From positions 248,001 to 312,000 of the forward strand of contig NZ_SSNL01000006.1 of the NCBI RefSeq assembly GCF_007004735.1: a DNA stretch of 64,000 nucleotides. The letters run 5' to 3'. The stretch is from Salinigranum halophilum (GTDB lineage: Archaea > Halobacteriota > Halobacteria > Halobacteriales > Haloferacaceae). Shown here in pieces: positions 22,654 to 63,220 of the stretch. The notes under the pieces are model-generated. The model had not been told where the DNA came from, ran no database searches, and saw only the letters and a list, made by a program, of their open reading frames with translations. The position numbers and the translations under genes are program-made. The first letter of the stretch is position 1. Each line of letters opens with the position of its first letter.

Positions 22654-22674
22654 AAGGCAGGGAGTTGCGAGACG

Positions 22675-31805: not shown

Positions 31806-31862
31806 TCGAGACGAGTCGATTATCGGCCATCAAGAGAGCCTCAGGCAGCAGTCGCCCTCAGC

Positions 31863-32864
31863 TCACTCACCGACAGGACTGCCTTCCAGACACACCGTGG
31901 GAACGTCTTTATACGCAGATCGGAGTGTCATCGTGGAGACCCCCGCTGCAGTGGCGAGTTCTGTCTGTGTGAGCCTCGGTTCGGTCTCACGGCTCCACAG
32001 TAGACGACACCAGCAGCTACGCCACCAGGATACCTCCCGACGAATGTGTCGGTACTCATCGCCTCTCGGAGCAACTGACGCGCTGCGGACTCGGTTTCTG
32101 AAGACGCATCCACCGCCGTCAGGATTTGTGGCAGAACATCTGTGGGTTCGACGGGGGGGACGCCCAGTCGGAACTCCTTCAACATCGCACGATACGCTCG
32201 CTCGATTCGTTTCCGCTCGACTCGAGACACACAAACGACCGCCGCAATCCCCCGTGGAATCCGCTCGATTCGAGCGCCTGCGTACAGCGCCGCACTCGCA
32301 CACCCTTCGATGGTTCGGCCGTGGAGGAATCCCTCATCGTGGATACGTCGATACACCATCGACCCCGTTTCAGTGACGGCCTGTGGGAGGCCGAGCGCCG
32401 ATGCCATCCGGTCAATCTCACGGAGTCCAGTCCGAAGCGTCCGCTCGTTCCCACCGTGCGACACCATGCATGCCACGTTCGCAGGCGACTGAGTTGCATC
32501 CGCTTTCGCGCCGAGAGCGGCCGACCGTTACTGTTGTAGTTCCCCCACCCGATGTCGGTCGTCAACCCTTTGTCGTGACGAGTCAACGTCGCTGGGGATC
32601 CGACACGCGACCTCGAGTCCCCCTCATCGGACACAAAACTCCGCCACTCCGGACCCGGGTCGATCTCCGCTCTGTTCCGTCGGGGATGACACTCGAATCG
32701 CACTCTGGACACCGTTGTGTCGTCGCAGCAGTCTCGTGGGGGCTGGTTTTCTCAGTGTGGTCTGTTTCGTCTGCCTCTGAAGGATTCGAACAGTCGTCGT
32801 GTTGGCACTGAGTGATGTCATCTGTGTCGCTGTAGATGACACCGAGATTTCCGGGAGCAGCCAT
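31863..32864 (-). pseudogene. Decayed transcription initiation factor TFB
   Basis: TFB homology is spread over several frames. The start MAAPGNLG with CPECDSSVIPDGT is one frame, EIDPGPEWRSF ... GLTTDIGWGNYNSNGRPLSAR a second, MASALGLPQAVTETGSMVYRRI ... VERKRIERAYRAM a third, and LTQTELATAAGVSTMTLRSAY a fourth. Part of the zinc ribbon is missing. At least three shifts mean the gene is dead. The middle frame (31928-32476) could still yield a partial cyclin fold, but nothing suggests it is translated. Confidence 0.85.
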
Positions 32865-41944: not shown

Positions 41945-42964
41945 TCACGGCTCCGGTGCACGAGCCGCTAGCCGATACTGTCGCCCGCGTTTCTGTCCCT
42001 CGGCTCGAATCAGGTTGTACTGTTCGAGCTTCGAGCAGTAGTTTCGAATCGTCCGCTTCGTCTTCGGGTCGTCGACGCGCTCGCGATACGCGTCGTACAA
42101 CGAACCTGGACTCACCTCGTCGGCCTCGGCGATGATCTCGTAGACGACGTGCTGATGCGGGGTGAGTTTCTCTATGTCTTTCCGTTTCAGTTCCGATTTC
42201 CCCTCGGGAACCGCACTCTCGACGACGGCCATCGGGATGTGGTCGAGGCCCTGACTCTGTGCCTCTCGGGCTGCGGTGCGGAGGATGCCGATCGAGACGC
42301 GGGCATCACCCGCTGCGGCCTCGGCGATGTATCGAAGTGCCTCAGTGTCGATGACACCGTCGTCGAGCCCCCACCGCACGCGGTCTGAGAGGATGGCGAC
42401 TAGTTCATCCGTCCCGTACTTGTCGAACTGAATCCGAACCGAACTCTGCAGTCGGCTCCGGACCCGCTCGTCAAGTCGCGAAAAGAGATCGGTCTCGCGG
42501 TTGGCGATGAGGATTGGGTGGACACCCCTGATACGATACAAATCGTAGAGGACGTCCGTCGATTCGAGTTGGTCGACTTCGTCGAGAATGACCACATAGG
42601 GCTTGCCGTCGTACGCGTGCAGTCGGTCAAGGAGTTCGTCCTTGGGAGTGGAGCGGCGATGGATGTCGAGCGTCTGGCCGATGCCATCTAAGAGCCGGTA
42701 GAGTAATCGGAATCTCGTGTAGTCCTGCCAGCAGTTGACGTACTGGTACTCGAGTTCGAGGACCGCTTCACGAAGGCGGTCGACGGTAAAACGGGCGATG
42801 CACGTTTTCCCGGTCCCCGAGGGGCCCAAGAGAAGGGGTGTTTCCGGGGATTCGCCCAGCGTGAGTGGGTCGAGTGTTCGCGAGAGATGGTTGACTTCGG
42901 CGTCCCGGTGTGCGACCTCCTTCGGGATGAATTCGGGCTGCAACACGCGGGCGTCCTGTATCAC
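41945..42964 (-). CDS. orc: Orc1/Cdc6 replication initiator
   Basis: A 339-residue AAA+ initiator. Walker A is LLGPSGTGKTCIARF near residue 45, Walker B VVILDEVDQL near 127, sensor 1 PILIANRETD, then a lid domain and a C-terminal winged helix (LTPHQHVVYEIIAEADEVSPG, TIRNYCSKLEQYNLI). It should bind origins and load MCM. It is divergent from the repeat-protein gene across a 171-bp gap with a perfect inverted repeat. Together with PolB and TFB it marks 31.8-43 kb as a replicon or integrated-element backbone. Confidence 0.92.
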   Translation of the reverse strand: MIQDARVLQPEFIPKEVAHRDAEVNHLSRTLDPLTLGESPETPLLLGPSGTGKTCIARFTVDRLREAVLELEYQYVNCWQDYTRFRLLYRLLDGIGQTLDIHRRSTPKDELLDRLHAYDGKPYVVILDEVDQLESTDVLYDLYRIRGVHPILIANRETDLFSRLDERVRSRLQSSVRIQFDKYGTDELVAILSDRVRWGLDDGVIDTEALRYIAEAAAGDARVSIGILRTAAREAQSQGLDHIPMAVVESAVPEGKSELKRKDIEKLTPHQHVVYEIIAEADEVSPGSLYDAYRERVDDPKTKRTIRNYCSKLEQYNLIRAEGQKRGRQYRLAARAPEP

Positions 42965-43135: not shown

Positions 43136-46100
43136 ATGACTAATATTCAGAGACTTGTCTCAAACGCTGCCATTGATTACGAGGCGGATTTACTCACGTC
43201 GACGGGCAAGAGTGGACTGTTCTCGACCGGTTATCTCGCGACGAAACCACTCATCGAATATCTAAATTCGGGAGAAATCCCGCTTGTTGTGTTTACCTCG
43301 CCGAAGGAGTCACCGAGCGTGCAAAATGGAGATGAACCGGTGGTAGAGTTTCCGAGTGCCGAAGGATACCAGTCGTTTGGTGTCGTCACCGATTCTCGAA
43401 TTCTCCTCCTCACCGGCAATGATGACGGAGACGTTTCCTACTCGTTCTCACTCATGGACATCGATACCGTCTCGGTCGAAACTACCTCCTCGTTTTTGTC
43501 ATCCCAAGCTCGTCTGGTCATCACGACGGTCGACGGCGTAGAGGCTGTAACCCATCGGCTCACGTCAGTTGACCCGCATGAAGCTGCGGAGGTCATCGTG
43601 GAGAAGGCAAACGAGAACCGGTGTGTCGAGCTTACTGATCGACTCGAAGAGTCAGCACAACAACTCGCTGCTGGTGACAGTCGAAGAGACTCCCTCGAGA
43701 TCCTTGAGCAAGCCGCTGACCGATTATTTACGGTCACTTCTTATAACGACGCACAAACAGGAGAGGCCGATTCTCTCACCGACTCAGGCCGTCGGTTACA
43801 GGAACTTCGAGGCCAGGTACAGAGTGCCCAAACCGCCCTCTCGAAACTACAGGACGTCGAGGACACGATTCAGGACGGTGATGATGCGGTCCAAATTGGT
43901 TCCTCGAACGCGATCGGACACTACGAGACAGCGCTTGACCAACTTCAGTCCTTACAAACTGTAGTCGAAAAGAATGAGCTTCCATTTGCGGATATCCTTT
44001 TGGGTCGAATACAGAAGGTAAACAATCGCTTAGAGAACCACCGTCCGACCACAACTCACGAGAGACTCCACAAGTTACTCACGAAAGGACGGGACGCCAT
44101 CGCGCAAGCAGATCGCACCGACGGACCGAAAGACCGACTCGAACACCTCCAAACCGCGGTTGAGACACTCAGAGAGTACGCGGCCACAGTGAAAGATGCT
44201 GGGTTCGAAGGAGGTGTGAACAAAGGCGAACGATGTGAGATCTGTCAGCGACCAACATCGGTTCGTTGTGAGACCCACCTCAACTCGGATATCGTCTACA
44301 CCTGTCTGCCGTGCCGGTCGTTTGGTGCTGAGACGGATGAGGGGTTGCTCCTGTCCGCACAAGTCACCAAGCAGATCGATGAGTGTGAACGACGACTGGG
44401 GCAAACACTCGCCGATTCCAAATTCGTTCTGTACGCGAACGGTTCGTGGAGCGGATTTCCCGGGTCTGAAGCGTACTCGAAGCGAGTCCGTCGTATCACG
44501 GCGCTCATCTGTCTCACAGACGCGCTCGGACGTGTGCCCTCGTACAACGAGGCAACCACTCGGTTCCCGGATGGCTTGAGCCCACCTCACGACTACTACG
44601 ACTTTGCCGCCGAGGTCGGTGTCCGTCTCGATGAGGCGTTCCTCGATCAACTCCGAGAACAATCCTCCAACGACGAACTAGCACCTACGGCCGATCAACT
44701 CATCGAGGAGAGTGCGTATCCCCGATCCCAGTATGAGAAGCGGTTCGGGTCAATAAACAGTGCCATCGAGAAGGCGGGAGTTCGATTTGGTCAATCGGAC
44801 AGTTGGGTCCCTGCTATTCGTGAGTACTACGAGACACACCGAAGTGCACCGACTCCCGACGAACTGGAGGCGGAGTTCGGTGTCGAGATCGGAGACATCC
44901 TTCTGGACGCCCAGACATGGCGAGAGGCACTGTTGTGGGCTGGGATTCCAGAACGCGACATCGTTGAAGAGGACCCGATCCGCGATGAGGCCTTGCGGAT
45001 CGAAGGCGAGCTCGAACATCGCCCCACTGTCGAGGAGATACGGTTCTACTTCTCGTACCCCACTCGGGCGCTCAGACGATACATCCCACGAGGAGAGTCA
45101 CTCGAGGAAGTCCTTGACCGACTTTCGTTCCAGTATCCGGAGCGATCATTGGAGCCAACAGGAGATCTCGATGAATCCCCGGATTCGGCGTCGGATATCC
45201 CATCCCACACGGACTTGTTGAGAGAAGCACTGTGGCTCGTCCGGCGACACGGACAGGCGAAGTGTAGAGCCGAATTCGCGGACCTCTCTATGTTCGATAT
45301 TCAACACTACGATGTCCAATTTGGGTCACCCGACGCTGCCATTGAGCGTGCTGTTGGTCTCTCGACTCACGACCCCACCCAAGCGGAATACGCCCCGAAG
45401 GTGCAACTCGCCGAGGAAATCGAGGAGTTTGGAGACTTTCTGGGTCGGTCACCAAAGCCGATCGAGTTACTGTTGTACGGTTCGGTGTCAGTCGATAAAT
45501 TCGCGCAGAAGTTCGAATCGATGGCCGAGTTGAGTGAGGCTGCTGGTCACTCTTGGCCCCAAAGTATTCCTTCGAACGAAGCTCTTCTGTCTGACCTCAA
45601 GCGTGTTGCTGTCCCGCTCGGGTCGCCCCCTACGCTCGAACAGTACGCCCAGAACGGTGAGTACCCTTATGAACACCTCGTCCGCCGATTTGATGACTGG
45701 TTCGGCGTCCTCAGAGCTGCCGGGTTCTCACCGCTGTCTGAGGGGAATCCAGTACTCGAATACCACTCGTCGGATGTCGACTTAGTTCGGTTCGACGCTG
45801 ACGTGCGAGTTCGTACTGGCCTCGGCCGTGATGAGATACTCATCGATGAAATCTACCGAATCGCGTACGAACTCGGTGGGCGGCCGACACCGGACTCCGT
45901 GCAAACCCTCTCACAGTACCCCATCGATCTCTACGCTGAGGAATTCGGCTCCGTTCAAAACGCGATCGAGGTGGCTGACCTCGAGGATCTTGCCGACGTC
46001 GACCCTGCAGTCAATGCCCACGTTCGTGGTGATTTACGAACAGCGCTACAGGCGCTCATCGAAGAGTCACCGCACCCACCGCTGTCGCACGTCGTTTCCG

Positions 46101-48271
46101 CTGAACTTCAGTACTCAACACTATCGTTCATCACTGTGTTCGGTTCGTTCGAGAACGCGCTGAAGGCTCTTGGGTATTCCGCGGACGAACTGCCCACTGC
46201 CACGAAACCCGAACTCCTCGAGGCGTTCAGTACCGTAATGGATCAACTCGACGAGGTCCCGACCCCACAACAACTACACCGTCACTCGCGATTTGCAGCG
46301 CAAGACTTCGTGCTAGTCTTTGAGACGTGGCACTCGGTGTATGACGAGGCGAGTGTTGAACGCCCTTCGGAGATGTTCGGGAGTACCTCTTCTGAGGCCA
46401 ATGAGAGTCAACAGCCGTCCGAACCTGTCTCCGAGTTCGAGTTTGACTCCGAAGTCGAGTCCGAATCTGGCACCAGAGGTACCGAAGAGAACGAGTCTGG
46501 AGCCTCACCAACGCGAGCGGAACTGATCGAGGCAATCCAATCGACGAACGAACGTGTTAGTGGGCCACTCAAATCGTCGGATCTCAATGCACACTCTCCG
46601 TACTCCCAACACCAGTTCACGACTGAGTTCGGCTCGATAGAGGAGGCACTTGAACACAGTGGGATCGACAGACGCGAGCAGTGTCTCGACGAAATTGGCT
46701 TCGTTATCGACGAAATCGGCAGATTCCCGAATCAGGCCGATGTCGGTCGGCATGCGCGTGTAAGTGGGCCCTTCATCAATCGATACTTCGACGACTGGCT
46801 CGACGCGCTGACGGCGTTCGCAGACCGTCAGGGACTCTCAGGAAAAACCGCGAGTGATGAGTTGCTACTCGGTGAGATCGAGCGACTCGGTTCCAAGCAA
46901 GCCGACGCTGTGATGCCGTCTCAGATAGAACAAAAGGGTGTTTTCGAGCCGGCCGACTACGTGGAACGGTTTGGGTCCTGGCCGGAGGCACTCAACTCCG
47001 CCGGTATCGAGGCAGAAACTGAACTCCTCGAATCAATCCGCCGACTGAGACGCGATGCTGATGGGCCGCTCACCGAACAGTCGTTAGAGAGGAGTGATCG
47101 ATTCGACACGGACATACTCGATGAAGTGTTTGGATCGCTCGAAGCCGCTATCGACGCGTACGTCGAATCGTACGACACTGACATCGCCACGACGTCAAAC
47201 GCTGTCGCTGGTGACGAATCTGATGAGCAACAACCAGCCTCGGACGAATCAACACATCAAGCCGGAGGGGCGGGTACCCGGACAGAAACGCCGGATAGCC
47301 CGACAGATGAGGCAAACGAAAACACGTCAGACACGGGCTCAGAACCCACCTCTAATGACGAACTGCGCGAAGCGCTGATCGAAACACTTCGTGATCTTCA
47401 CAACGAGTTAGCGCACCCGGTGATGTCCTATGACATTAGTGAAAAGACGTCCTACTCTCAGTACGACTATTCGTCCGAATTCGGGTCACTGGACAACGCC
47501 TTCGAGGCAGCAGGTATCGACCGAACAGACTCGTTCCTCTGTGAGTACCATCGAGTGGCGCTGGAAGTCGGAGAACTCCCCTCGAAAGCGACATTCGACG
47601 AACACGCACATTTCAGCTATGTCACCTTGGTAAACAGACTGGGCGACTGGGATGAGATTCAAGCTCGCTATCGGGAGTGGGTAGAGGGTAGGTCCGACTC
47701 ACCTGGCGACACAGAGATCCACAGCGGTTCAAGGGAGGCACAGAATGACTCCGACGCTGACTCCAAAGGGGCTGGTTCGTCATCCACTGAACGTGAGACG
47801 GGCGGTTCACTCGAAGAAGAGAGTGCGCCGGCAAACGAATTCGATGAGCCAGTCGAGACGGTCACCTTCTCCGATGTCGCCGTCGGCTCTCAATACGACC
47901 AACCGATTGCGGTACGCTTAGTCGCAACCGAACCGGAGACCGCCAGTGATGTAGACGCCCTCCTTACAGTCGAAGATACGAGTGGCGAGCGGGTACAATT
48001 TCGCGTTCTCACGGGCCACTCTCCGGGGGTCGATTGGACCGTCGGAGACTGGTACGAGATACAGAGATTTTGGAGTGGCAATAAATACAAAAACGGTGAG
48101 CCGCACCGATATTTACTGAGTACAGAGAGGCTCTCAGCTCAGCAACTCGATACTGCTGAACAAGCGAACGAGGACAGCACTGATCATGACAAGGATAATA
48201 ATATCGATGACAGTGATGAATTGATGGGTTCGATAGATGAACAACTCGATGAGTTGCTTGGAGAGACATGA
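43136..48271 (+). CDS. Giant protein: PH-like domain, zinc motif, about 16 HEAR-type repeats, OB-fold
   Basis: A 1711-residue protein. Residues 25-160 resemble a bacterial PH domain (LVVFTSPKES, GVVTDSRILLLTG), 165-365 are helical, and a zinc motif CEIC...CLPC begins at 367. From about 450 to 1516 I count roughly 16 copies of a 45-60-residue unit with a Gly-x-x-Pro turn and an FGS-W/I-x-x-A-x-x-x-A-G end (FGSINSAIEKAGV, FGSWPEALNSAGI, FGSLDNAFEAAGI). These resemble homing-endonuclease-associated repeats. They fall in three blocks split by acidic linkers. Residues 1572-1664 look like an OB-fold (VTFSDVAVGSQYDQPIAVRLV). No nuclease motif seen. The repeats may form a DNA-contact or recruitment scaffold (inference). 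Confidence 0.8.
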   Translation: MTNIQRLVSNAAIDYEADLLTSTGKSGLFSTGYLATKPLIEYLNSGEIPLVVFTSPKESPSVQNGDEPVVEFPSAEGYQSFGVVTDSRILLLTGNDDGDVSYSFSLMDIDTVSVETTSSFLSSQARLVITTVDGVEAVTHRLTSVDPHEAAEVIVEKANENRCVELTDRLEESAQQLAAGDSRRDSLEILEQAADRLFTVTSYNDAQTGEADSLTDSGRRLQELRGQVQSAQTALSKLQDVEDTIQDGDDAVQIGSSNAIGHYETALDQLQSLQTVVEKNELPFADILLGRIQKVNNRLENHRPTTTHERLHKLLTKGRDAIAQADRTDGPKDRLEHLQTAVETLREYAATVKDAGFEGGVNKGERCEICQRPTSVRCETHLNSDIVYTCLPCRSFGAETDEGLLLSAQVTKQIDECERRLGQTLADSKFVLYANGSWSGFPGSEAYSKRVRRITALICLTDALGRVPSYNEATTRFPDGLSPPHDYYDFAAEVGVRLDEAFLDQLREQSSNDELAPTADQLIEESAYPRSQYEKRFGSINSAIEKAGVRFGQSDSWVPAIREYYETHRSAPTPDELEAEFGVEIGDILLDAQTWREALLWAGIPERDIVEEDPIRDEALRIEGELEHRPTVEEIRFYFSYPTRALRRYIPRGESLEEVLDRLSFQYPERSLEPTGDLDESPDSASDIPSHTDLLREALWLVRRHGQAKCRAEFADLSMFDIQHYDVQFGSPDAAIERAVGLSTHDPTQAEYAPKVQLAEEIEEFGDFLGRSPKPIELLLYGSVSVDKFAQKFESMAELSEAAGHSWPQSIPSNEALLSDLKRVAVPLGSPPTLEQYAQNGEYPYEHLVRRFDDWFGVLRAAGFSPLSEGNPVLEYHSSDVDLVRFDADVRVRTGLGRDEILIDEIYRIAYELGGRPTPDSVQTLSQYPIDLYAEEFGSVQNAIEVADLEDLADVDPAVNAHVRGDLRTALQALIEESPHPPLSHVVSAELQYSTLSFITVFGSFENALKALGYSADELPTATKPELLEAFSTVMDQLDEVPTPQQLHRHSRFAAQDFVLVFETWHSVYDEASVERPSEMFGSTSSEANESQQPSEPVSEFEFDSEVESESGTRGTEENESGASPTRAELIEAIQSTNERVSGPLKSSDLNAHSPYSQHQFTTEFGSIEEALEHSGIDRREQCLDEIGFVIDEIGRFPNQADVGRHARVSGPFINRYFDDWLDALTAFADRQGLSGKTASDELLLGEIERLGSKQADAVMPSQIEQKGVFEPADYVERFGSWPEALNSAGIEAETELLESIRRLRRDADGPLTEQSLERSDRFDTDILDEVFGSLEAAIDAYVESYDTDIATTSNAVAGDESDEQQPASDESTHQAGGAGTRTETPDSPTDEANENTSDTGSEPTSNDELREALIETLRDLHNELAHPVMSYDISEKTSYSQYDYSSEFGSLDNAFEAAGIDRTDSFLCEYHRVALEVGELPSKATFDEHAHFSYVTLVNRLGDWDEIQARYREWVEGRSDSPGDTEIHSGSREAQNDSDADSKGAGSSSTERETGGSLEEESAPANEFDEPVETVTFSDVAVGSQYDQPIAVRLVATEPETASDVDALLTVEDTSGERVQFRVLTGHSPGVDWTVGDWYEIQRFWSGNKYKNGEPHRYLLSTERLSAQQLDTAEQANEDSTDHDKDNNIDDSDELMGSIDEQLDELLGET

Positions 48272-49276: not shown

Positions 49277-50065
49277 ATGGCGCTATTTAGGAGAAACGTT
49301 GTTGGCACTGAGGTCCTCTCGATGTGGCGATACGTATCCCACGCCGAACCAGTCACTCGGAAGGAACTTATTCAGCGATACTATCCCGGAGATGCATCGA
49401 ACCCCAACGAGAGTGATCAGCGAAAACCACTTGTTGATGCAATCGATTTCCTCATCGACACTCGACAGTTCCTGGAGCACGAGAATGGACTGGTGATTAC
49501 GGACGCAGCCCGTGAGGAAGTGTGTCCGGAAGTTTCGATTCTCCGTGGGATCCGTACCGCGACCGGCGAAGACGCCGCCTACAACGACGTCCTCGACGTG
49601 CTGACCGAAGACGACCAGGTCTTCTTCGATCGAGGAGATCCATTGGTAGACCTGCTGAGTGGGCGACGGAGCGATGTCAGTTGGAACTCCACCCGTCTGA
49701 ACTACTGGCGACGAATGATGGATGCGATTGGCGTCGTCAGAGACGTTGATGCGGATTCAGATGAGGACTATACCACCATGTTGTCCCTCCATCGAGAGCT
49801 ACTGAATGCACTGCTTCGCTCAGTGATGGAGCCGTCCGAACCGGCGCAACTCAGCCAAGTCCTCAATGACCTTCACGAAGAGTACCTCCCAGTGTATGCG
49901 GGCGCGAATCGAAACAGCGTGGCAGCATACATCGAGCGTGCACTCTCCCACGCTCAAGCACACGACGACGTGAATATCGGACAGGAAAGTGACTTTGGAC
50001 CGACAGTTGACCTCAACGGAGCTGGAGTCAACTTAATTGCACTCCGAGTACGCAGTCAAGAATGA
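49277..50065 (+). CDS. dpdG: DpdG-like winged-helix protein
   Basis: A 262-residue protein with an N-terminal winged-helix-like region (LSMWRYVSHAEPVTRKELIQRYYPG, then DAIDFLIDTRQFLEHENGLVIT). A helical C-terminal part follows. Its stop overlaps the next gene's ATG. Assignment to DpdG rests on the order and sizes of this gene and the three after it, matching dpdG-dpdH-dpdI-dpdJ in bacterial dpd clusters. ATG 49277 is preferred to a TTG at 49235, which would lie inside the likely untranslated leader. Confidence 0.6.
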   Translation: MALFRRNVVGTEVLSMWRYVSHAEPVTRKELIQRYYPGDASNPNESDQRKPLVDAIDFLIDTRQFLEHENGLVITDAAREEVCPEVSILRGIRTATGEDAAYNDVLDVLTEDDQVFFDRGDPLVDLLSGRRSDVSWNSTRLNYWRRMMDAIGVVRDVDADSDEDYTTMLSLHRELLNALLRSVMEPSEPAQLSQVLNDLHEEYLPVYAGANRNSVAAYIERALSHAQAHDDVNIGQESDFGPTVDLNGAGVNLIALRVRSQE

Positions 50066-53040
50066 CGACCTATCCAAAAAATTGGACGACAGATGCGATC
50101 CGCAAGTACATCACACAAGAATCACAACAGAAAGATCGTGAGTCGTTCGAGAAAACACACGTCCCGATAAGTCGAATACGGGTTGAAGAGGACAAAGCAG
50201 TGTCCTCTTGGGTCGACGAAGACCAACGACTAGTTGGCGAAGAGATCGTCTTGGAGACCGTTCTCGACTCAACGCCTGACCAAGGGAATCGACTGTTCTT
50301 CGTTGTCGGTGAGAGTGGGAGTGGAAAGTCCGAACTCTGTCAGTGGCTCGATTACAAGATTCAAGACGAGGTCACTGATCAGACATCGGATAGCTTCGCA
50401 CACGAGCCGATCCTCATCCCACGCCAGGTCAGAGAACCCCGGGATGTACTACAGTTACTCACTGAGAACCTCGACGAGTGGGATTTCGAGGATGTAAAGT
50501 ATCTCTCGGACCTTCCGGAGTCGGGCATCTTCAAAACGGTCACTGGGAATATCATCAATCGGTTTAACAAACGCCAGACCGCGACGGTCGACTTTCTCAA
50601 CGACGACCTGTTCGAAGACAAAGTCAAAACGAATCTGAGTGAGTACGTCGACACCTTCGCCGACCCCGACCAAAGTGTTGAGTTCGAACCGATCTCTCAG
50701 GAATCTCTCGAGTCGTTGCTCGAGAAATTCCCGCGCGTCACGCACGAACACGAGCACCACGATATCGAACCAACAGAATACCTGTATCGTGAGATCAAGA
50801 CTGCAGCAACTGACGCTATCGAGGAGATGTTGTTCGATGGAGACTTCATCGATGTGTTGAACGGTGTCGATGAGGCCTATCGAGAGCGAAACCGCCGCCC
50901 GGTGTTGATCATTGAAGACCTGACCGGGTTCACGATCTATGACCACCAGGTTCTCTCGTTCTTTTCGGATCTCGGTTCAGCCCATTTCGACGTGATTGTC
51001 GGGGTAACCACAGGTGTCCACCGGCGGCTCATCGACAAACGACGTGCAGACGTCTCCTCTGAGGACACTATCGATGACCGAACGATGGCTCGGTTCCGAC
51101 TCACCGAAGAGACTGCAGACGGAACTGGCTCTCGGACCCTCTTTCTCGAACAGGAAGACGTCCATATCGACCTCGCTCGAAAGTACTTGACAGCGATTAA
51201 GTCAGAAACCGATGCACAGTACGAACCGCCGCTGCCTGCGGGGTTGAGCGCAGACGACGTTGAATCTGCGTTCGGTGACGGGTTGTACCCGTTCAACGAG
51301 CAGTTCCTCACCCGGATTTACCAGAATCTCCAAGAAGACGAGATCCGCAAACAGACTCCGCGTGTCTATCTCACGTTCGTCATCGAGGAACTACTGAACA
51401 GCATTACTCCTCCCTTCGAGCATGCAGAGAAGTTACAACAGCGGTTGGGCGTAATCGAGAACCCGATCTCACCAAGCTACAACGGCGAGGACGAACCAGT
51501 CCTGAAGTGGTACGGGGTCGTCTCTGGCCGCGCGCAGGTCGCCGACTCGCGGATTCCCGGGTCATTCGGGATTGACAGTGAGGGGCGTGCTCCAATCGTC
51601 GACGATCCCGTTGATGTGTGTCCCGAGTGTGGAACCGGGATCTACCAAGACAGCGATGAGTGGGTCTGTCCTGAGTGTGGATACGAGTCCACGTCGGGAG
51701 ACACACGTAGGGAAACCTTCGACGAACAAAAAAACGAGCTCCTAGCGTGGTGCCGCGGGGAGACGGATTTCAATCAGACGAAGAACATTGAGCGTGGTGC
51801 AGAACGAGTGATTCGATTTTTCCACCGGACGCCGGACTCACTCGTTCGACCGGGGAACTATTCACAGTCGGCGGCATATTTCAGGTGGGAGAAGGGGTCG
51901 ACGCGAGTCCCCGTCCATATCGACAATGGGGACAGCCCGAACTTCACACAGGTCGTGTTGAACCCCGATTTAGACGAGAAACTCCTCAGAGACCTCCTGC
52001 GAGTTGGTGTCTGGGACGATATCGGCATCACGACACACGACGCCAAGGAGAATATCGACCTGGGTCAGTTGCGAGAGTGGGCTGACGACGCTGTCCAAAC
52101 GCTCCGAGCAGACATTGAATCTGATATTCACGACACGTACGGTGCTGATCTCGATGAGATCGCGATTTTCGGGAAGTATCTTCTCAACGTCTTCACTGGA
52201 ACCAGCACCGAGTTCACCGCAAGGGCGCTGGCACAACCAGTCGATGAGTCGCGAATACAGCTCGCCTTCTCCACGACAGCGTTCGAAGGCGATCTAAACA
52301 AGCTCCAAAATAAAGCCGAGTTCCTCCGAGGTCTCTTCCACGCTCGGTTCCACGTTCGGAGAAACGTCGTCGATGCCGACCAACTCGAAGAGACAGTGGG
52401 CGATCTCGACCCTGAGAAACTTCTCCTCCGCATCGGGTCGATCAGTGGAAGTCTCAAGGGACTCAAAATCGGACCGAAGTCCTCTGAGACGATCGAATTC
52501 GACACTCTACTCAAATCCCCGGTCTCTCTCAACATTAGAGGGTTCGCGCGTGATATCGATGAGTACAGTTCCATCTTCGCGGACGATCTGGAGTCGATTC
52601 GGTCCGAATACGGAGGGTTGTATCGACGACTCAATGGCATCGAATCTGAGTTCGACATCAAGACACTGACCGAGGCGTACTCAGTCGTGACGCGCCAGCA
52701 GCCAAACGACCTCAGCGAGATAGACGACATCGAGCTCTCGACAGTCAAGACGCTCATGAGCGAACTGGAGAGCATCGCCCAATCCGTAGAAACGTGTGAC
52801 TCAGTGTGGGACTTCCTCCTTCTGAAGCAAACGGCGTATCAACTGAAATACAAGGGGTCACTGAGTGATTATTTTTCTCAGTTCAGTACCTTTGTCGATG
52901 AATTGGAGGGGCTCGAGACGGATCTCGACGCTCGAATCGCGGAATTAGAAGACACGGAGTTTAATCCGGACACTGAGTCGTTCGACCAGGCACAGCAGAC
53001 TGCTCGGACGCTTCGTGAGAGGTTAGGTGAGTCACTATGA
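50062..53040 (+). CDS. dpdH: DpdH-like large P-loop ATPase
   Basis: A 992-residue ATPase. Walker A FFVVGESGSGKSELCQWLDY is near residue 82, Walker B-like RPVLIIEDLTGFTIY near 280, followed by VGVTTGVHRRLID. A zinc ribbon CPECGTGIYQDSDEWVCPECG lies at about 519-540. The remaining C-terminal half is helical. In the described dpd cluster DpdH is an ATPase with a restriction role. It overlaps both neighbours by 4 nt. Confidence 0.7.
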   Translation: MTTYPKNWTTDAIRKYITQESQQKDRESFEKTHVPISRIRVEEDKAVSSWVDEDQRLVGEEIVLETVLDSTPDQGNRLFFVVGESGSGKSELCQWLDYKIQDEVTDQTSDSFAHEPILIPRQVREPRDVLQLLTENLDEWDFEDVKYLSDLPESGIFKTVTGNIINRFNKRQTATVDFLNDDLFEDKVKTNLSEYVDTFADPDQSVEFEPISQESLESLLEKFPRVTHEHEHHDIEPTEYLYREIKTAATDAIEEMLFDGDFIDVLNGVDEAYRERNRRPVLIIEDLTGFTIYDHQVLSFFSDLGSAHFDVIVGVTTGVHRRLIDKRRADVSSEDTIDDRTMARFRLTEETADGTGSRTLFLEQEDVHIDLARKYLTAIKSETDAQYEPPLPAGLSADDVESAFGDGLYPFNEQFLTRIYQNLQEDEIRKQTPRVYLTFVIEELLNSITPPFEHAEKLQQRLGVIENPISPSYNGEDEPVLKWYGVVSGRAQVADSRIPGSFGIDSEGRAPIVDDPVDVCPECGTGIYQDSDEWVCPECGYESTSGDTRRETFDEQKNELLAWCRGETDFNQTKNIERGAERVIRFFHRTPDSLVRPGNYSQSAAYFRWEKGSTRVPVHIDNGDSPNFTQVVLNPDLDEKLLRDLLRVGVWDDIGITTHDAKENIDLGQLREWADDAVQTLRADIESDIHDTYGADLDEIAIFGKYLLNVFTGTSTEFTARALAQPVDESRIQLAFSTTAFEGDLNKLQNKAEFLRGLFHARFHVRRNVVDADQLEETVGDLDPEKLLLRIGSISGSLKGLKIGPKSSETIEFDTLLKSPVSLNIRGFARDIDEYSSIFADDLESIRSEYGGLYRRLNGIESEFDIKTLTEAYSVVTRQQPNDLSEIDDIELSTVKTLMSELESIAQSVETCDSVWDFLLLKQTAYQLKYKGSLSDYFSQFSTFVDELEGLETDLDARIAELEDTEFNPDTESFDQAQQTARTLRERLGESL

Positions 53041-53813
53041 CGACAGCACAGAACGTCTCGACTGTGCAAGACCGTATCGAATCGATTCACAACAAGGCTG
53101 AACAGGTTGCCGAACTTGCAGAGGAGGCCGATCAGATCAAGGCGAAACGCGAACGGGCCCAAGCAAAAAACAACGGGTTCGAATCGCTCGAGAGTAAACT
53201 CGATGACGTCGAAGAACAGTACGGCAAACTCAAAACATGGGTACAGATCGCGGGGTGCCTCAACGTCTCTGTCGAACGGGATGAACTTCGAGCAGTAATC
53301 GAAGAGATCGACGGCGATATCGGTTCGTTCCTCGAGAGAGATTACGAGGGGTTCTACAACCGGAGTGACGTCGATGACGAAGCGGCGTCGTTTGAACACC
53401 ATCGAGAGACCCTTCGAGGCTTCACCGATGAGGTAAAGCGTGATGTCCAATCGGTGGCACAACAGGAGGCAAAATCCGTCGATCGGATCCAGTCGCTTCT
53501 TCAGATTCCAGACATCGGAACTGACGAGGACAAACAGGTTTGTGATAATTATCAGTACTTCCTCGGCCAGATCTCGAAAGGGAACATGCATCAAATCACT
53601 ATCGAGCGCCTCTCTCAGCATCGTGATGACTTCCACTCGTTGGATATCAGTCTGGGTACGGATCTCTCAGAGGAAGCGAGAGACGTGATTTGGAGTATTC
53701 TCGAAGACAAAGAGGTCACACTCGCGGAAGTGAGTAGTGACGTCCTGGCCGATCTCAAGAGCTTCGAGGAGTTCAGCCAGCGACTCACTGTTGAATTCAC
53801 GAGGTCTACATGA
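53037..53813 (+). CDS. dpdI: Coiled-coil protein, DpdI-like position
   Basis: A 258-residue helical protein with an N-terminal coiled coil (VQDRIESIHNKAEQVAELAEE, LESKLDDVEEQYGKLKTWVQI). No catalytic motif is visible. It overlaps the ATPase stop and the helicase start by 4 nt. DpdI is assigned by position only. A structural bridge between the ATPase and helicase is plausible. Confidence 0.5.
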   Translation: MTTAQNVSTVQDRIESIHNKAEQVAELAEEADQIKAKRERAQAKNNGFESLESKLDDVEEQYGKLKTWVQIAGCLNVSVERDELRAVIEEIDGDIGSFLERDYEGFYNRSDVDDEAASFEHHRETLRGFTDEVKRDVQSVAQQEAKSVDRIQSLLQIPDIGTDEDKQVCDNYQYFLGQISKGNMHQITIERLSQHRDDFHSLDISLGTDLSEEARDVIWSILEDKEVTLAEVSSDVLADLKSFEEFSQRLTVEFTRST

Positions 53814-56800
53814 CTCGATTCGATCCGATTGCTCTCGGGGAATACGCACAAGATAGCTACGCGACGTACCTCATCGGTGGTAACCAGCGAGGGTATCATG
53901 GCCTGCTTGAAGGATTTCAAACTGACACAGCATCGGCAGAGGGGACTCCGACTGAGTTCATTCGCTCAAAAGGACCGATTCTTCAGGGTGTTCCTGCGGC
54001 AACCTGGAGTGAGACCCCCTGGACAACGTTTGCACGCTCGGTAGACGGAACGTTCGCCCCGAACGGACTCGAAAAGCCGATTATTGACGCGTTCACCGAC
54101 GAGGGGTTCGAGAGCCTCCAGACACATCAGGAGGAAGCGATACAGTGGCTCGTCGATGACAAGCACGCACTCATTGCTGCGGGAACGGGACGTGGGAAGA
54201 CGGAAGCGTGGTTCATCCCAATACTGCAATACGCACTGCGTGCGAAGCGTGGTCGCATAGAGGGGCACTCTGGCTACGATTCGTCGATCAAAGCGGTTAT
54301 CACATATCCGACAAAAGCACTTGCACAGGACCAACTCAAACGCTTCATCGAGTATCTCTGGTTGGTCAACGAAAAGACCGACCTACCGAGCGATCAGAAA
54401 CTCACTATCGGCGTCTACGACGGTGACACGCCGTATCGAAACTGGGTCTCCGGAGAGAACAAAGACCCCTTCACGTACCTCATCGACTCGTTCAAACACT
54501 TCGAGTTACCAGGGACGATCGCAGAACAGACCGCGATTGATGAGGCGACCCTCGAGGAGGTCCCACCCAGTGTCTTCGTTGAGAAGGGAAGTACCACAAA
54601 CGAGTATCGACTCAAGTTACGAGAGGAATACGGCGGCCACCGCCTGGATTTCGTGCATCTCACACGCGACAAGATGCACGAGGATCCACCAGACATCCTG
54701 TTGACTAACCCGGACACCATCAATTATCGACTCTTCAACATCAATGACGAGCAGGCCCACCGGATGTTCGTCGACCAACCCAAGTTCTTGGTGTTCGACG
54801 AGGTTCACACGTATCAGGGCCTTTTCGGCGCACACGTCTCCATGCTCGTCAAACGACTCCGGCAACTCCGAACCGAACGCGGAGTCGAAGATCAACTTCG
54901 GATTATCGCCTCAAGTGCAACGATTGACGAGCGAGAAGTACTGTTCCAACGGTTATTCAACGTCCCTACCGACGAGCGAGACACGACGTACAAACTCATC
55001 GAAGAAGCGACCTCCGACGAGGTATCGGGCGAATCCGGCGAGTTGCCGGACAGTTTGACCACGGTCCGGTTTGACCCTGATACGATCGACCAGCCCGACT
55101 CGTGGTCAGTAGAGGTACGCGAGCAATTTTCGGACCTCGGGATCGACCCGACGGATGGGGGTGAACTCTCAGAGCAAGTGTCGGCTGCCGTGTCTGATGG
55201 GTCGCTCCAGTGTGTTGACCACCTTCACGGTGTTCTTCAAGACCCGCTTGCAGACGAATATGATATCGATGCCGCACCGGAATTCGATGACTTCACCGAC
55301 TACATCGAACGCACATACGGGTGTAACTCCGCCGAGGCGACACGTGCGGCGCACAACGTTCTCGTGCTGTTTGGACTTGCAGGATATGAACTTCGGGCTC
55401 ACGTACTCAACTGGCCCGTTGACGGCTACTACAAATGCCTCCACTGTCACCAGATATACTCGAAGCCGAAAGAGTGTGATTGTGAAGGTCACGAACACAG
55501 CACCTCGTTCGTTACTAAACTTCGATTGTGTCAAGACTGTGGTGAGCAGGTGTATGAAGCATGGCTCTGCCCCGACTGTGGGACAGTCCGCCCGGTGACA
55601 CAGGAGACAGAAGGTGAGTATCTCTATGCAAGCAAACCGGAGTGTAATCACCCAAAGCACGCAGAGTTACAACGTGTTTACTGGACTCCCGAGTACCAGT
55701 GCGCTTCGTGCGGGACGATCGAGCGACTCAGCGATGGCTTGGGCTACTGTGCGTGTGGGGGGTCGCTGACCCGGACAACCGACGGCCTCGTTTGTAAAGA
55801 CCCGACCTGTGAGAGAGAGAACAAGCCTGCAGAGAGTAGCTGTGCTGACTGTGGTGGGCAGTTGGAGCTCTTAGAACCAGAGCGACTCGAGTGCTCTGAC
55901 CCATCCTGTGAGCGCCATGGAGACGATCAGGAGGGTAGAAACTGTCGCGACTGTGATTCACGACTGGTTCCGAAGGTTTCCCTCTCGTGGATCTGTAGCA
56001 ATGAGAATCACCGTGGGCATCGACCGTGGGAAAGCCCTGGTACCTGTGACTGCGGTCGTTCGACGTTCGTCCTCCCGGCGTATATCGATACCCAAGAGGC
56101 GGATTACTGCGTCGACTGCAACGAAAGCCGGAAATCCGAGGTCTATCACCTCGCCGGGACAGGTTGTGCAATCGAAGGACACGATTCGATCGACAGAGAG
56201 TACTCTTCGTTCGGACTCAAGGCGGTGTACCGTGATTCGGACGGCAACATCCGTCTTGCATCACCCGGTAAGGCCTCGCATGCGCTCCCCTGCTATCACG
56301 GACGGCGTCGGAACTACGACTCACTCATGCGGTCACCGACGAACGCGGGCGTCACGATGAGCCAGTTTATGTTGCGACGATTGGCTGATCGCAACGGCTC
56401 CCAAGAGCAGGCCAAACTCATGTCATTCGCGGATTCGTACCGTGACATGGAACGGCTCGCAAACGACTTTGACGAACCCGAACGGAAACTGTTCATCCAA
56501 CAGCGGATCCTGTCGTTCCTTGTCGAGCATCAAACAGCGACGCTCACCGAACTCCTTGAGGGAACACTCGAATCAGCACGGGCGTATTGGAACGACATCG
56601 AGGCGAGCGATGACGTAATCGATGACGTCATTGGCTACGGGCAGTGGAGAGGGACACTCATGGGGCAACTGCTGCCGGGGTCGTATCTGCTGTACAATAA
56701 TAATATCTCCCGCCAGTACGGCGAACTTGTCAACAAAGGATTCGTCGATATTTCGTTCGCAAAGCCACTGCGAACCCCAGAAGAACGGAAGATCTGTCGG

Positions 56801-59398
56801 GAGTTGTTGGAAGAAAACCGCCAGCCTCGGCAGTCACTCCTCAAGACGATTCGCGAATCAACCGAGATTGCGAACCCAGTTTCGGTCATCAGCGATTTGA
56901 AAGAGCGTGGCGTCCTCAGAGAAGACGAAGAGTACGACCGCATCGGATTCGACTTGGACGCAATCGCGGTCAAGTTAGTCTCCGACGCGCATGGAATACC
57001 GTACAATCCCCATTACGATACCTTCTGGAGTACGGCAGAGAGGGAGGTCGGGAAATCGATTCCGGAGACAGTCCAGTTTACCGTTCGATACACTGAGCGG
57101 GCAGACCCAGGCTCACCATACTTCGAGCGGACAGCGTACAGGGCAGCGACGACCAGCCCTCGACTACTACTCAGTCAAGTCTACAAGGGAGACGTCCCTG
57201 CTGACGAACGACGACGGATCGAGCACGAATTCAAGCACGATCCGACGCCGAATTTCCTCTCGACCGGGCCGGCGATGGAGATCGGGATCGATATCGGAGA
57301 CCTCAACACGTTGCTACTGATGGGGACGCCACCGAATACGAACGCGTATCTCCAGCGGATTGGCCGAGCAGGACGTGACGTCGGCAAGTCACTGGTCACG
57401 ACGGTCAGTAAGCGCAACCCCATCGATTTCTACTATCACAAACTCCCGGAGAAACTCATCAGCTCGGCCGAAAAGCCTGTGCCACTCAACCAGCACAACG
57501 AGAGTGTTCTTCGAATTGCACTGACATGGTCGGTGATGGATTACATCGCTGCTCGATATCACATTCCGTGGGAACGAAACGAGCACGTCGACAGCCAAGA
57601 GATAACGAAACCCGACCCGAGCGAGTGGGATCGTTATCGGAAAGAAAACCCACGAGACAAGCCCCCCTCGGACGTTCAGCGCTTTACGCAACTCTACAAC
57701 AAACGAGTCGAACAGATTAATCACGGGTCGATTTTCGAGGTGCTCCAGCACATCGTCGAACATGATGACGGGGTCGACAAATGGCTCCATGATCTTCTGG
57801 ACTACGTCTACTGCCGAAACTGCCAACATATCTTTTCTGCAGAGACGACAGGAGAGTGCACGGAGTGTTCCGAGGGAGATCTTCGCCACGCAAGAGAGGA
57901 GTTCGACGAACTCATCGACGACGTCCTCAATAACTTCGCCAGTCGAGTGGTGTATCCTGCCTACAACTATCGGAGTGACTTACAGTCGGATCTCCAAGGA
58001 GTCGTCGACGAAATCGATGAACTGGAAGGGACTGCACAGGCAGGTGGAGGGGGAGCGTTCGGCGGAGGCGGATTCGATGAGCTTGACTCGCAAGGGTCCG
58101 ACTCAGAAGTCGATCGCCGTCTCAGTCGCCTCAAACTCAAGCGAGACATGATACAAGACCTCATCAGCGAGTACAACAGCTCGAAGTTCAGTGACATCCA
58201 TGGTCGGTCTGCGGTCTCCGAGTACGTCCCTCAACTACGAGCGTTCGGTGACTCGGTGGCGGTGACGCGTCGTGAGCGGTCCAACCGCGGGACGATCAAA
58301 GCCGAGAGCAAGTCCTCGTGGGACAGAGATTCCGCCATGGCGATTCGCGAACTCCATCCGTACGCATACGTTCTTCGCAACAAGCGCGGATACGTGGTGA
58401 CAAAGGTGGAGCGCGATACCGAGGGGACACGCGCGCTCCAAGAGCAAACTGGCGGACCGAAACTCCGCTGCCGAAAGTGTGGGTTCACGACACAGTGGGA
58501 AGAGCAATCCCAGTGTCCAGATGACGGCTGTGATGCGGGTGCGGAGCACCTCGTGAAAGTGGAATCGATAGCCATCAACGGTGTCGAGCTCACGGAGGCG
58601 TCTGTCGAAGAAAACGACTACAACGTGACGGACGTGTATCCGCTTTCAGGGTACAATACGAATCCACGGAGCACCTTCGGGCACACCTCGACTGAGATCC
58701 CAGAGTTCGAAGTCGAGCGATCCGTAACGTTCACCGGCCCCGATGACGCGCTGCTGTTCACGGTTGAACAGGGGAGAGTCGAGGTCGTCGAAGCCGTCAC
58801 ATCCTTTACGACCTCCTATGATGACGAGCAGAAAGATCCACGAGAACAACCCCTCCGAATCTGTCACGATCGCGACTGTGGGAGTGTTGTGGTCCCCGGC
58901 GCTGATGGGACGAAACGGTGTCTGAGCGATCCGACCCACGACCGCTCTGAACAGGCCGACGTCTTCGTGGGCCGGACCTTCACGACGAAAGGGCTGCGTA
59001 TAACGGGGTCAGAACTCTCTGATTCGTGTCTTCATACGCTCGCGCATGGCTTCAGACTCGCACTGCAGCGGACCGGTGGACTGGATATCCGCAGTCTGCA
59101 GGAAGCGTTCAACGAGGGCGATGACGAAGCGTTCGTTTTCGAGAGTGCTGTTGGTGGGAACGGCGTCACGGATCTCCTCTTCCAAGTGGAAGATGATGTC
59201 CACGTCGAGTTGCTCGACGCATTGACCGTCATGCACCAGAATATCACCGGGTGTGACTGTGCAACGGGTTGTCCCGAGTGTCTGTATCAGTACGGGTGTT
59301 CCGAACGCAATCGGGATACGACGCTTGCGAAAGACCTCACTGAAGAACTCCTTGACTCGCTACTGAGTCAGCAACCTGAGGAGATCATCACCGGATAA
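53810..59398 (+). CDS. dpdJ: DpdJ-like DEVH helicase with a zinc-finger array and DUF1998
   Basis: A 1862-residue SF2 helicase. Walker A AAGTGRGKTEAWF is near residue 122, Walker B FLVFDEVHTYQG near 328, motif III IIASSATI, motif V FLSTGPAMEIGIDIG and motif VI LQRIGRAGRD near 1182. Between the lobes (about 540-765) lie at least six CxxC-pair modules (CLHC, CQDCG...CPDCG, CASCG...CACGG, CKDPTC...CADCGG, CSDPSC...CRDC, CDCG). Further pairs CRNC...CTEC and CRKC...CPDDGC follow. A C-terminal DUF1998 ends in CDCATGCPECLYQYGC. It fits DpdJ-type helicases and is at the long end of what I recall for the family. Confidence 0.8.
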   Translation: MTRFDPIALGEYAQDSYATYLIGGNQRGYHGLLEGFQTDTASAEGTPTEFIRSKGPILQGVPAATWSETPWTTFARSVDGTFAPNGLEKPIIDAFTDEGFESLQTHQEEAIQWLVDDKHALIAAGTGRGKTEAWFIPILQYALRAKRGRIEGHSGYDSSIKAVITYPTKALAQDQLKRFIEYLWLVNEKTDLPSDQKLTIGVYDGDTPYRNWVSGENKDPFTYLIDSFKHFELPGTIAEQTAIDEATLEEVPPSVFVEKGSTTNEYRLKLREEYGGHRLDFVHLTRDKMHEDPPDILLTNPDTINYRLFNINDEQAHRMFVDQPKFLVFDEVHTYQGLFGAHVSMLVKRLRQLRTERGVEDQLRIIASSATIDEREVLFQRLFNVPTDERDTTYKLIEEATSDEVSGESGELPDSLTTVRFDPDTIDQPDSWSVEVREQFSDLGIDPTDGGELSEQVSAAVSDGSLQCVDHLHGVLQDPLADEYDIDAAPEFDDFTDYIERTYGCNSAEATRAAHNVLVLFGLAGYELRAHVLNWPVDGYYKCLHCHQIYSKPKECDCEGHEHSTSFVTKLRLCQDCGEQVYEAWLCPDCGTVRPVTQETEGEYLYASKPECNHPKHAELQRVYWTPEYQCASCGTIERLSDGLGYCACGGSLTRTTDGLVCKDPTCERENKPAESSCADCGGQLELLEPERLECSDPSCERHGDDQEGRNCRDCDSRLVPKVSLSWICSNENHRGHRPWESPGTCDCGRSTFVLPAYIDTQEADYCVDCNESRKSEVYHLAGTGCAIEGHDSIDREYSSFGLKAVYRDSDGNIRLASPGKASHALPCYHGRRRNYDSLMRSPTNAGVTMSQFMLRRLADRNGSQEQAKLMSFADSYRDMERLANDFDEPERKLFIQQRILSFLVEHQTATLTELLEGTLESARAYWNDIEASDDVIDDVIGYGQWRGTLMGQLLPGSYLLYNNNISRQYGELVNKGFVDISFAKPLRTPEERKICRELLEENRQPRQSLLKTIRESTEIANPVSVISDLKERGVLREDEEYDRIGFDLDAIAVKLVSDAHGIPYNPHYDTFWSTAEREVGKSIPETVQFTVRYTERADPGSPYFERTAYRAATTSPRLLLSQVYKGDVPADERRRIEHEFKHDPTPNFLSTGPAMEIGIDIGDLNTLLLMGTPPNTNAYLQRIGRAGRDVGKSLVTTVSKRNPIDFYYHKLPEKLISSAEKPVPLNQHNESVLRIALTWSVMDYIAARYHIPWERNEHVDSQEITKPDPSEWDRYRKENPRDKPPSDVQRFTQLYNKRVEQINHGSIFEVLQHIVEHDDGVDKWLHDLLDYVYCRNCQHIFSAETTGECTECSEGDLRHAREEFDELIDDVLNNFASRVVYPAYNYRSDLQSDLQGVVDEIDELEGTAQAGGGGAFGGGGFDELDSQGSDSEVDRRLSRLKLKRDMIQDLISEYNSSKFSDIHGRSAVSEYVPQLRAFGDSVAVTRRERSNRGTIKAESKSSWDRDSAMAIRELHPYAYVLRNKRGYVVTKVERDTEGTRALQEQTGGPKLRCRKCGFTTQWEEQSQCPDDGCDAGAEHLVKVESIAINGVELTEASVEENDYNVTDVYPLSGYNTNPRSTFGHTSTEIPEFEVERSVTFTGPDDALLFTVEQGRVEVVEAVTSFTTSYDDEQKDPREQPLRICHDRDCGSVVVPGADGTKRCLSDPTHDRSEQADVFVGRTFTTKGLRITGSELSDSCLHTLAHGFRLALQRTGGLDIRSLQEAFNEGDDEAFVFESAVGGNGVTDLLFQVEDDVHVELLDALTVMHQNITGCDCATGCPECLYQYGCSERNRDTTLAKDLTEELLDSLLSQQPEEIITG

Positions 59399-63191: not shown

Positions 63192-63210
63192 GGAGGAATC
63201 ACTGTATGTC

Positions 63211-63220
63211 TGATATATAA
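63211..63220 (-). promoter_or_regulatory. TATA-like box for the LAGLIDADG-like gene
   Basis: TTTATATATCA on the minus strand is about 26 nt upstream of the ATG at 63191, consistent with a leaderless mRNA. Confidence 0.55.

What the first reader, a model, noticed from the sequence alone, without database searches (positions are those of the whole stretch)
43136..48271. Giant repeat protein with about 16 homing-endonuclease-associated-type units
Single repeats of this type usually flank HNH or LAGLIDADG nucleases and are thought to contact DNA. Here about 16 degenerate copies are strung together in three blocks, with a PH-like domain in front and an OB-fold behind, and no nuclease. A modular DNA-reading or scaffold protein at the head of a dpdG-J-like operon would be new to such systems.
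Basis: partly seen in the sequence, partly recalled or inferred. Interest (0 to 1): 0.85.

Follow-up and report, generated by a model that had tools for sequence, protein, structure and literature searches.

The report
Giant repeat protein in archaeal defence operon
A salt-loving archaeon carries, at the head of a defence-type operon with a giant helicase, a 1,711-residue protein made of about 15 helix-turn-helix-like repeats between a PH-like and a single-strand-DNA-type OB domain; relatives of it are repeatedly coupled or fused to helicases in such operons, so it is probably the part that grips DNA, although DNA binding has not been shown.

Summary
The 1,711-aa protein (43136-48271) matches Pfam PF18780 HNH_repeat (E 8.7e-90), with 14 clear units and 1-2 partial ones, plus an N-terminal PH-like domain, a zinc site, a C-terminal OB domain and no nuclease. 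It is translationally coupled (ATGA overlap) to a five-gene cassette, B-C-DpdH-like-E-giant SF2 helicase, on the same window as a DpdA/DpdC-type operon.

Two things are new here. (1) Repeat-array proteins of this kind recur beside a sister form of the cassette (12 of 23 haloarchaeal loci) but not beside the window's own form (no multi-unit, nuclease-free array in 37 other loci); elsewhere they lie next to, or are fused with, SF2 helicases and Pbe-type genes. The window shows a recurring partnership in an unusual place. (2) The repeat is predicted at high confidence as a four-helix, HTH-like unit, and Bacillus plasmid arrays of the same family are strongly basic and hypervariable at predicted recognition positions, as modular readers would be.

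Against DNA reading: the window's own units are acidic (mean net -5.6 per 51 residues) and show no hypervariable positions. Most likely it is the DNA-engaging scaffold of a helicase-driven restriction module. Size alone is not unique (13-17 units elsewhere).

The parts
43136..48271 (+). Repeat-array protein, 1711 aa (PH-like / helical / Zn site / about 15 HNH_repeat units / OB / acidic tail)
   Evidence: ends in ATGA overlap with the next gene
43184..43615 (+). PH-like domain (aa 17-160)
   Evidence: homologous to the N-terminal domain of L182/L160/L161; L161 model hits bacterial PH domains; weak bPH_3 hit in relative L039
43628..44200 (+). Helical / coiled-coil region (aa 165-355)
   Evidence: equivalent region of the L161 model is long helices; sequence
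44234..44314 (+). Zinc-ribbon-like site C367-x2-C370 ... C390-x2-C393
   Evidence: read from sequence; similar CxxC pair in the one-repeat protein of a Natronorubrum Dpd locus (weak)
44630..45118 (+). Repeat units 1-3 (aa 499-661)
   Evidence: profile hits 60, 47, 29 bits
45287..45352 (+). Partial repeat unit (aa 718-739)
   Evidence: 3.4 bits only
45398..46357 (+). Repeat units 4-8 (aa 755-1074)
   Evidence: profile hits 42-64 bits
46514..47167 (+). Repeat units 9-12 (aa 1127-1344)
   Evidence: profile hits 47-64 bits; AlphaFold2 model mean pLDDT 91.9
47366..47656 (+). Repeat unit 13 (aa 1411-1461) and unit 14 (about 1470-1507)
   Evidence: 67 bits; second unit 26.2 bits with the Pfam profile, about 0 bits with the iterative profile
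47855..48151 (+). OB-fold domain (aa 1574-1672)
   Evidence: aligns with OB domains of L033, L160, L161, L164, L165, L168, L176; fold hits Teb1/POT1/RPA for L161
48268..49146 (+). Cassette gene B (292 aa, no family)
   Evidence: homologues lead the cassette in most type 1 loci
49277..50065 (+). Cassette gene C (no known family; ATG at about 49277, longest ORF from TTG 49235)
50062..53040 (+). DpdH-like AAA ATPase with zinc ribbon (992 aa)
   Evidence: NCBIfam DpdH 66.8 bits, E 1.4e-18, below cut-off 450; family in 62 of 392 genomes
53037..53813 (+). Coiled-coil protein E (258 aa)
53810..59398 (+). Giant SF2 helicase, DruE/DpdJ/DrmA-like (1862 aa)
   Evidence: PADLOC DruE1 E 7.9e-56, DpdJ 1.5e-30

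Best explanation
The protein is the DNA-engaging scaffold subunit of a helicase-driven, Dpd-like restriction module. Its repeats, each a four-helix HTH-like unit, grip duplex DNA at many points. Its OB domain, of the POT1/RPA class, holds single strand exposed by the giant SF2 helicase made from the same operon. The PH-like domain, helical region and acidic tail dock the DpdH-like ATPase, the helicase or other copies of itself. The array would therefore load or retain the helicase/ATPase on invading DNA that lacks the host's modification. Shown here: the domains, the operon coupling, the recurrent pairing and fusion of such arrays with SF2 helicases and their recurrence beside Dpd-like and Pbe-like genes. 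Inferred: DNA binding, ssDNA binding, docking, and a defence role.
For: Translational coupling: ATGA overlaps of rep/B, C/DpdH, DpdH/E and E/helicase. Arrays with PH, OB or HHH domains lie beside the sister cassette (helicase-B'-C'-DpdH'-E') in 12 of 23 loci, against 0 of 37 for multi-unit nuclease-free arrays at the window's form (Fisher p about 1e-6, loci not independent); in L084, L138, L139 and L144 the array gene is 58-65 bp ahead of the helicase on the same strand. PH-repeats-OB is fused to an SF2 helicase in one polypeptide in Halorientalis and Natrinema (L035, L160, L161) and directly follows a PbeA-like helicase in Natronorubrum thiooxidans (L182) and archaeon SHR40 (L165). Among loci found by repeat sequence alone, 8 of 11 non-nuclease arrays but 1 of 11 nuclease-linked ones have a helicase/Pbe/TGT neighbour (p 0.0075). 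The OB domain of relative L161 hits ssDNA-binding OB structures. Repeat model pLDDT 91.9, four helices per unit.
Against: The window's own repeat units are all acidic (net -2 to -9 per 51 aa), more so than nuclease-linked haloarchaeal units (p 0.005), though like other helicase-linked ones. The closest relatives of the cassette (L067, L068, L133) persist without any repeat protein in the stretch read, so it is not an obligatory part. No PDB hit of the repeat model is significant (best E 0.38). PH and OB folds were modelled in a relative, not in the window's protein. No experiment on any member was found.
Confidence: 0.5

Rival explanations
1. The repeats are a protein-protein scaffold. Acidic, degenerate HTH-like units have lost DNA contact and serve as an elongated platform that organises the ATPase and helicase; only the OB domain, if anything, touches nucleic acid.
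For: Net charge of the window's units -5.6 on average; entropy is even over all helices (2.1-2.6 bits), with no hypervariable recognition positions. Units are far from the family consensus (best single unit E 1.6e-12 against 1e-22 to 1e-26 for the best haloarchaeal units).
Against: Haloarchaeal proteins are acidic in general; other helicase-linked arrays are equally acidic and keep OB or HHH domains.
Confidence: 0.25
2. A modular sequence reader, TALE-like: each unit recognises a few bases and the array addresses particular sites (viral genomes, plasmid origins, or sites on the host).
For: In Bacillus plasmid arrays of the same family, 41 distinct units vary strongly only at positions 18, 24-26 and 28 (mean entropy 2.8 against 0.8 bits elsewhere), units come and go between plasmids (17, 15, 14+6), and the longest protein has pI 10.2. 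Weak profile match of the unit to TetR_N in the recognition-helix register (P 0.0044; TrmB 0.1), and TetR structures dominate the non-significant fold hits.
Against: The window's own units lack that signature and are acidic; linkers between units are irregular.
Confidence: 0.15
3. A passenger: a homing-endonuclease-derived or plasmid-borne repeat gene inserted ahead of the cassette, with no part in its function.
For: Only 1 of 38 cassettes of this form has it; a separate single-repeat LAGLIDADG-like gene lies 14 kb downstream (62235-63413); the family is common in haloarchaea (261 of 392 genomes).
Against: ATGA overlap with gene B; recurrence beside sister cassettes and helicases.
Confidence: 0.1

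Closest known systems
Pfam PF18780 HNH_repeat (homing endonuclease associated repeat)
   Same: Every unit belongs to it by profile; the neighbour gene at 62235-63413 is the textbook form (one unit plus a LAGLIDADG-like domain).
   Different: About 15 units, no nuclease; PH-like and OB domains; coupled to a helicase operon.
PH-repeats-OB helicase fusions and neighbours of haloarchaea (Halorientalis, Natrinema, Natronorubrum thiooxidans; no family name found)
   Same: Same PH-like domain, repeats, OB domain; SF2 helicase partner.
   Different: 4-5 units rather than 15; ResIII/PbeA-like helicase rather than the giant DruE/DpdJ-like one; no zinc site seen.
Dpd (7-deazapurine in DNA) systems
   Same: DpdH-like and DpdJ-like proteins in the operon; a DpdA-DpdC fusion, TGT and further helicase genes 11-27 kb upstream in the window.
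   Different: DpdH and DpdJ far below the equivalog cut-offs; archaeal gene order; repeat protein not part of the Dpd clusters known to me.
DndD/Pbe (CxC ABC ATPase) systems
   Same: pbeC-like gene 59868-61919 closes the locus; repeat-array genes lie next to pbeC in several other genomes (L033, L162, L163, L176, L182).
   Different: No PbeA, B or D recognised beside it in the window or among the eight genes tested in the next stretch.
TALE / PUF modular readers
   Same: Tandem units; hypervariable residues in Bacillus arrays of this repeat family.
   Different: Fold and unit length; signature not present in the window's protein; binding untested.

Membership tests
PF18780 HNH_repeat | Score above the curated cut-off (26 bits) | tested here: met
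   295 bits for the protein, E 8.7e-90; 8 units over the cut-off singly in the genome scan
Homing endonuclease | Nuclease domain (HNH, LAGLIDADG, GIY-YIG) | tested here: not met
   No such Pfam/NCBIfam hit in the protein
Dpd system | DpdA (TGT-like) modification gene in the locus | tested here: met
   Window 15874-19401 matches DpdA E 2.9e-66 and DpdC 5.8e-10
Dpd system | DpdH equivalog in the cassette | tested here: not met
   66.8 bits against cut-off 450; distant homologue only
Dpd system | DpdJ equivalog in the cassette | tested here: not met
   102.5 bits against cut-off 800
Dpd system | 7-deazapurine actually present in host DNA | not testable with these tools
   needs mass spectrometry
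Druantia | DruE helicase with Druantia partner proteins | tested here: not met
   DruE-like helicase E 7.9e-56, but no Druantia partner matches rep, B, C or the DpdH-like protein, and only a coiled-coil match of 0.016 to DruC for E
Pbe system | PbeA-B-C-D together | tested here: not met
   pbeC-like only (659 bits); no PADLOC Pbe match in the eight genes tested beyond it
PH-repeats-OB family with SF2 helicase | PH-like, at least two repeats and OB in one protein, helicase partner | tested here: met
HTH (TetR-like) fold for the repeat | Significant fold or profile match to HTH families | tested here: inconclusive
   Foldseek best E 0.38; hhalign P 0.0044 with TetR_N, probability only 8%
TALE-like modular reader | Hypervariable positions in otherwise constant units | tested here: not met
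   Absent in the window's protein; present in Bacillus arrays

The most novel reading that the evidence does not exclude
HNH_repeat arrays are a new class of modular, multi-unit DNA readers that give SF2-helicase restriction modules (Dpd-like and Pbe-like) their target choice. The window holds a giant archaeal example, and the Bacillus plasmid arrays show the underlying one-unit, few-bases code through hypervariable recognition residues.
Probability: 0.2. Interest if true: 0.92.

Novelty: new variant of a known kind. Interest (0 to 1): 0.62.

Why it matters
Modification-linked defence modules with giant helicases (Dpd, Druantia, DISARM, Pbe) lack a well-understood target-finding part. A repeat array that recurs with such helicases, sometimes in the same polypeptide, is a concrete candidate for that part and can be tested in haloarchaeal hosts. 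If the repeat type proves to be a modular reader, it would add a compact DNA-binding scaffold to the few known.

Tried and rejected
Scan of genome contigs with the whole protein found no relative, so relatives had to be traced through the repeat and through the DpdH-like gene. An eight-pair repeat alignment was too diverse for pattern scans. No phage record matched the protein; viral contigs gave two weak arrays. No solved structure matches by sequence; the C-type lectin and rbcX hits are taken as chance matches. The A6 alignment misplaced the PH fragments and was replaced by A7. A PH-domain gene pair beside Bacillus arrays was considered as a parallel to the PH-repeat fusion and set aside, since such pairs look like ordinary membrane proteins (inference). 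Uniqueness by size was rejected (L165, L036). The idea that the repeat protein is a fixed part of the window's cassette type was rejected: the other 37 loci of that type lack it.

Full report
OBSERVATION. The ORF at 43136-48271 has 13 confident HNH_repeat units and 2-3 weaker ones. Pfam gives E 8.7e-90; an iterative profile gives 29-67 bits per unit, while shuffled sequence gives nothing positive. Pfam's own profile also passes its cut-off for a 14th unit at aa 1470 (26.2 bits). The units fall at aa 499-661, (718), 755-1074, 1127-1344 and 1411-1507, with irregular linkers. In front are a PH-like domain (about aa 17-160), helices, and a CxxC...CxxC zinc site (aa 367-393). Behind are an OB domain (about aa 1574-1672) and an acidic tail. 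No nuclease is found.

STRUCTURE. AlphaFold2 on four of the window's own units (aa 1122-1346), with 25 related segments, gives mean pLDDT 91.9 and four helices per unit. Foldseek finds no significant PDB match; most of the top of the list are TetR regulators at E of at least 0.38. A profile comparison aligns helices 2-4 with the TetR_N HTH in the recognition-helix register (P 0.0044, probability 8%; TrmB control P 0.1). I call the unit HTH-like as a lead, not a finding. For the flanking domains a relative of the same architecture, L161 (Natrinema salsiterrestre, aa 868-1574), was modelled. It hits bacterial PH domains 3dcx/3hsa and OB folds of Teb1, POT1, telomere end-binding protein and RPA, with probability about 1 but E only 0.004-0.06. 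These are ssDNA-binding OB folds.

SURROUNDINGS. The stop codon overlaps the next start (ATGA at 48268-48271), and the same overlap joins C/DpdH, DpdH/E and E/helicase. The operon continues with B and C (no family), a DpdH-like ATPase (NCBIfam 66.8 bits, cut-off 450), a coiled-coil protein and a 1,862-aa SF2 helicase related to DruE, DpdJ and DrmA. Upstream, 171 bp away and divergent, is an Orc1/Cdc6-like gene. Downstream and convergent are a pbeC-like ATPase gene (659 bits to PbeC) and a single-repeat LAGLIDADG-like gene. At 15874-32376 lies a DpdA-DpdC fusion, a TGT, a BrxD-like ATPase, a second DpdJ-like helicase and a PD-(D/E)XK protein, so the window holds a Dpd-like modification operon and this cassette 11 kb apart.

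THE CASSETTE ELSEWHERE. A DpdH-like profile finds the family in 62 of 392 haloarchaeal genomes. About 60 neighbourhoods were read. By gene order and helicase size they fall into two forms: type 1, B-C-DpdH-E-helicase of about 1,840 aa (the window plus 37 others, often beside the DpdA operon), and type 2, helicase of about 1,578 aa-B'-C'-DpdH'-E' (23 loci, often with TGT and DUF6884 genes). The division is mine, made. Repeat-array proteins occur near type 2 in 12 of 23 loci, with two further loci carrying only the PH-like or the associated 'YGQ' domain. Near type 1 outside the window, multi-unit nuclease-free arrays occur in 0 of 37; one locus has a single-unit protein about 9 kb off (L088) and one a nuclease-like fusion (L078). 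Fisher p is 1e-6 (5e-5 if those two are counted). Chance proximity would give under one locus in 23, on the assumption of 1.5-6 array genes per genome. Loci are related, so p-values are indicative. In L084, L138, L139 and L144 the array gene is 58-65 bp ahead of the helicase on the same strand, that is at the head of the operon, the position it holds in the window.

HELICASE PARTNERSHIP. Independent of the cassette, PH-repeats-OB is fused to an SF2 helicase (L035, L038, L160, L161). It follows a PbeA-like helicase by 14 bp in Natronorubrum thiooxidans (L182) and by 115 bp in archaeon SHR40 (L165, 13 units plus OB, 1,647 aa), and repeat proteins lie beside pbeC in L162, L163, L176 and L182. In L034 the same fusion seems to be split by an IS66 element (inference from the shared N-terminal sequence). 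Among loci fetched by repeat sequence alone, 8 of 11 non-nuclease arrays against 1 of 11 nuclease-linked ones have such a neighbour. The repeat family thus has two lives: with nucleases (HNH, LAGLIDADG, Mrr-like, Vsr-like) and with helicases.

DOES THE ARRAY READ DNA? For the repeat type: a Bacillus plasmid protein (L036) is nothing but 17 near-identical units, pI 10.2. Over five Bacillus arrays the 41 distinct units vary at positions 18, 24-26 and 28 (mean 2.8 bits) and little elsewhere (0.8 bits), and whole units are gained or lost between plasmids. This resembles TALE or PUF arrays. For the window's protein: units are acidic (net -2 to -9; mean -5.6), like other helicase-linked haloarchaeal arrays (-4.5 to -4.7) and more acidic than nuclease-linked ones (-3.0; p 0.005). 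No position class is hypervariable. So multivalent, perhaps non-specific, DNA engagement or scaffolding is likelier than a code.

MECHANISM. Best supported: a DNA-engaging scaffold for the helicase module, with repeats on duplex, OB on the strand exposed by the helicase, and PH/helical parts for docking. Domain identity, coupling and recurrence are shown; binding, docking and defence are inferred. Rivals are a pure protein scaffold, a modular reader, and a passenger gene.

NOVELTY. PF18780 is known but without a published function in the library searched. The recent BREX survey (PMC12839542) describes TGT-containing BREX-related systems but, in the passages searched, no such repeat protein. 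The association of repeat arrays with Dpd-like and Pbe-like helicase modules appears new to me; Dpd, Pbe, SF2 helicases and the repeat itself are known kinds. Hence a new variant of a known kind.

Noticed in passing
window 15874-32376: Dpd-like modification operon: DpdA-DpdC fusion (1175 aa), TGT, BrxD-like ATPase, DpdJ-like helicase, PD-(D/E)XK protein. The same genes flank the cassette in other haloarchaea.
   Followed up: partly
window 62235-63413 (-): Single HNH_repeat plus degenerate LAGLIDADG-like domain; relatives lie beside repeat arrays in L165 (1369-2337) and L182 (223-1167).
   Followed up: partly
window 59868-61919 (-): Solitary pbeC-like gene (659 bits to PADLOC PbeC) without recognisable pbeA, B or D.
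   Followed up: partly
window 41945-42964 (-): Orc1/Cdc6-like gene divergent from the repeat gene; a homologue stands divergent to the cassette in L080 and L120.
   Followed up: no
L036 7368-10340 (Bacillus subtilis plasmid pNIB353_1, WP_104843671.1); also L228, L229, L230: Arrays of 6-17 near-identical HNH_repeat units (L036: pI 10.2) with hypervariable positions 18, 24-26, 28 and unit gain/loss between plasmids: a candidate modular nucleic-acid reader.
   Followed up: yes
L165 5580-10523 (archaeon SHR40): 1647-aa protein: membrane segment, HHH, coiled coil, 13 repeats, OB; 115 bp after a PbeA-like helicase.
   Followed up: partly
L043 474-8150 (-): 2558-aa protein joining an SF2 helicase, repeats, DUF4011, an SF1 helicase and a REase_MTES_1575 nuclease.
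   Followed up: no
L042/L167 188-3241: Mrr-like N-terminus (weak hit) with about 9-10 repeats and an HHH domain.
   Followed up: no
C-termini of L044, L164, L165, L166, L182 and, more loosely, L033, L162 and the window protein: Shared acidic C-terminal tip of the form ILxxIxxEF[DE]x[LI], possibly a docking motif.
   Followed up: no
L084, L085, L138, L139, L140, L043: An unnamed domain with a YGQQQ motif, mostly followed by a C-terminal HHH, found with the repeats near type 2 cassettes.
   Followed up: partly
L168 6312-10534 (Salinibaculum litoreum chromosome): Six-repeat OB protein directly ahead of a DpdC-like gene and a TGT gene.
   Followed up: no
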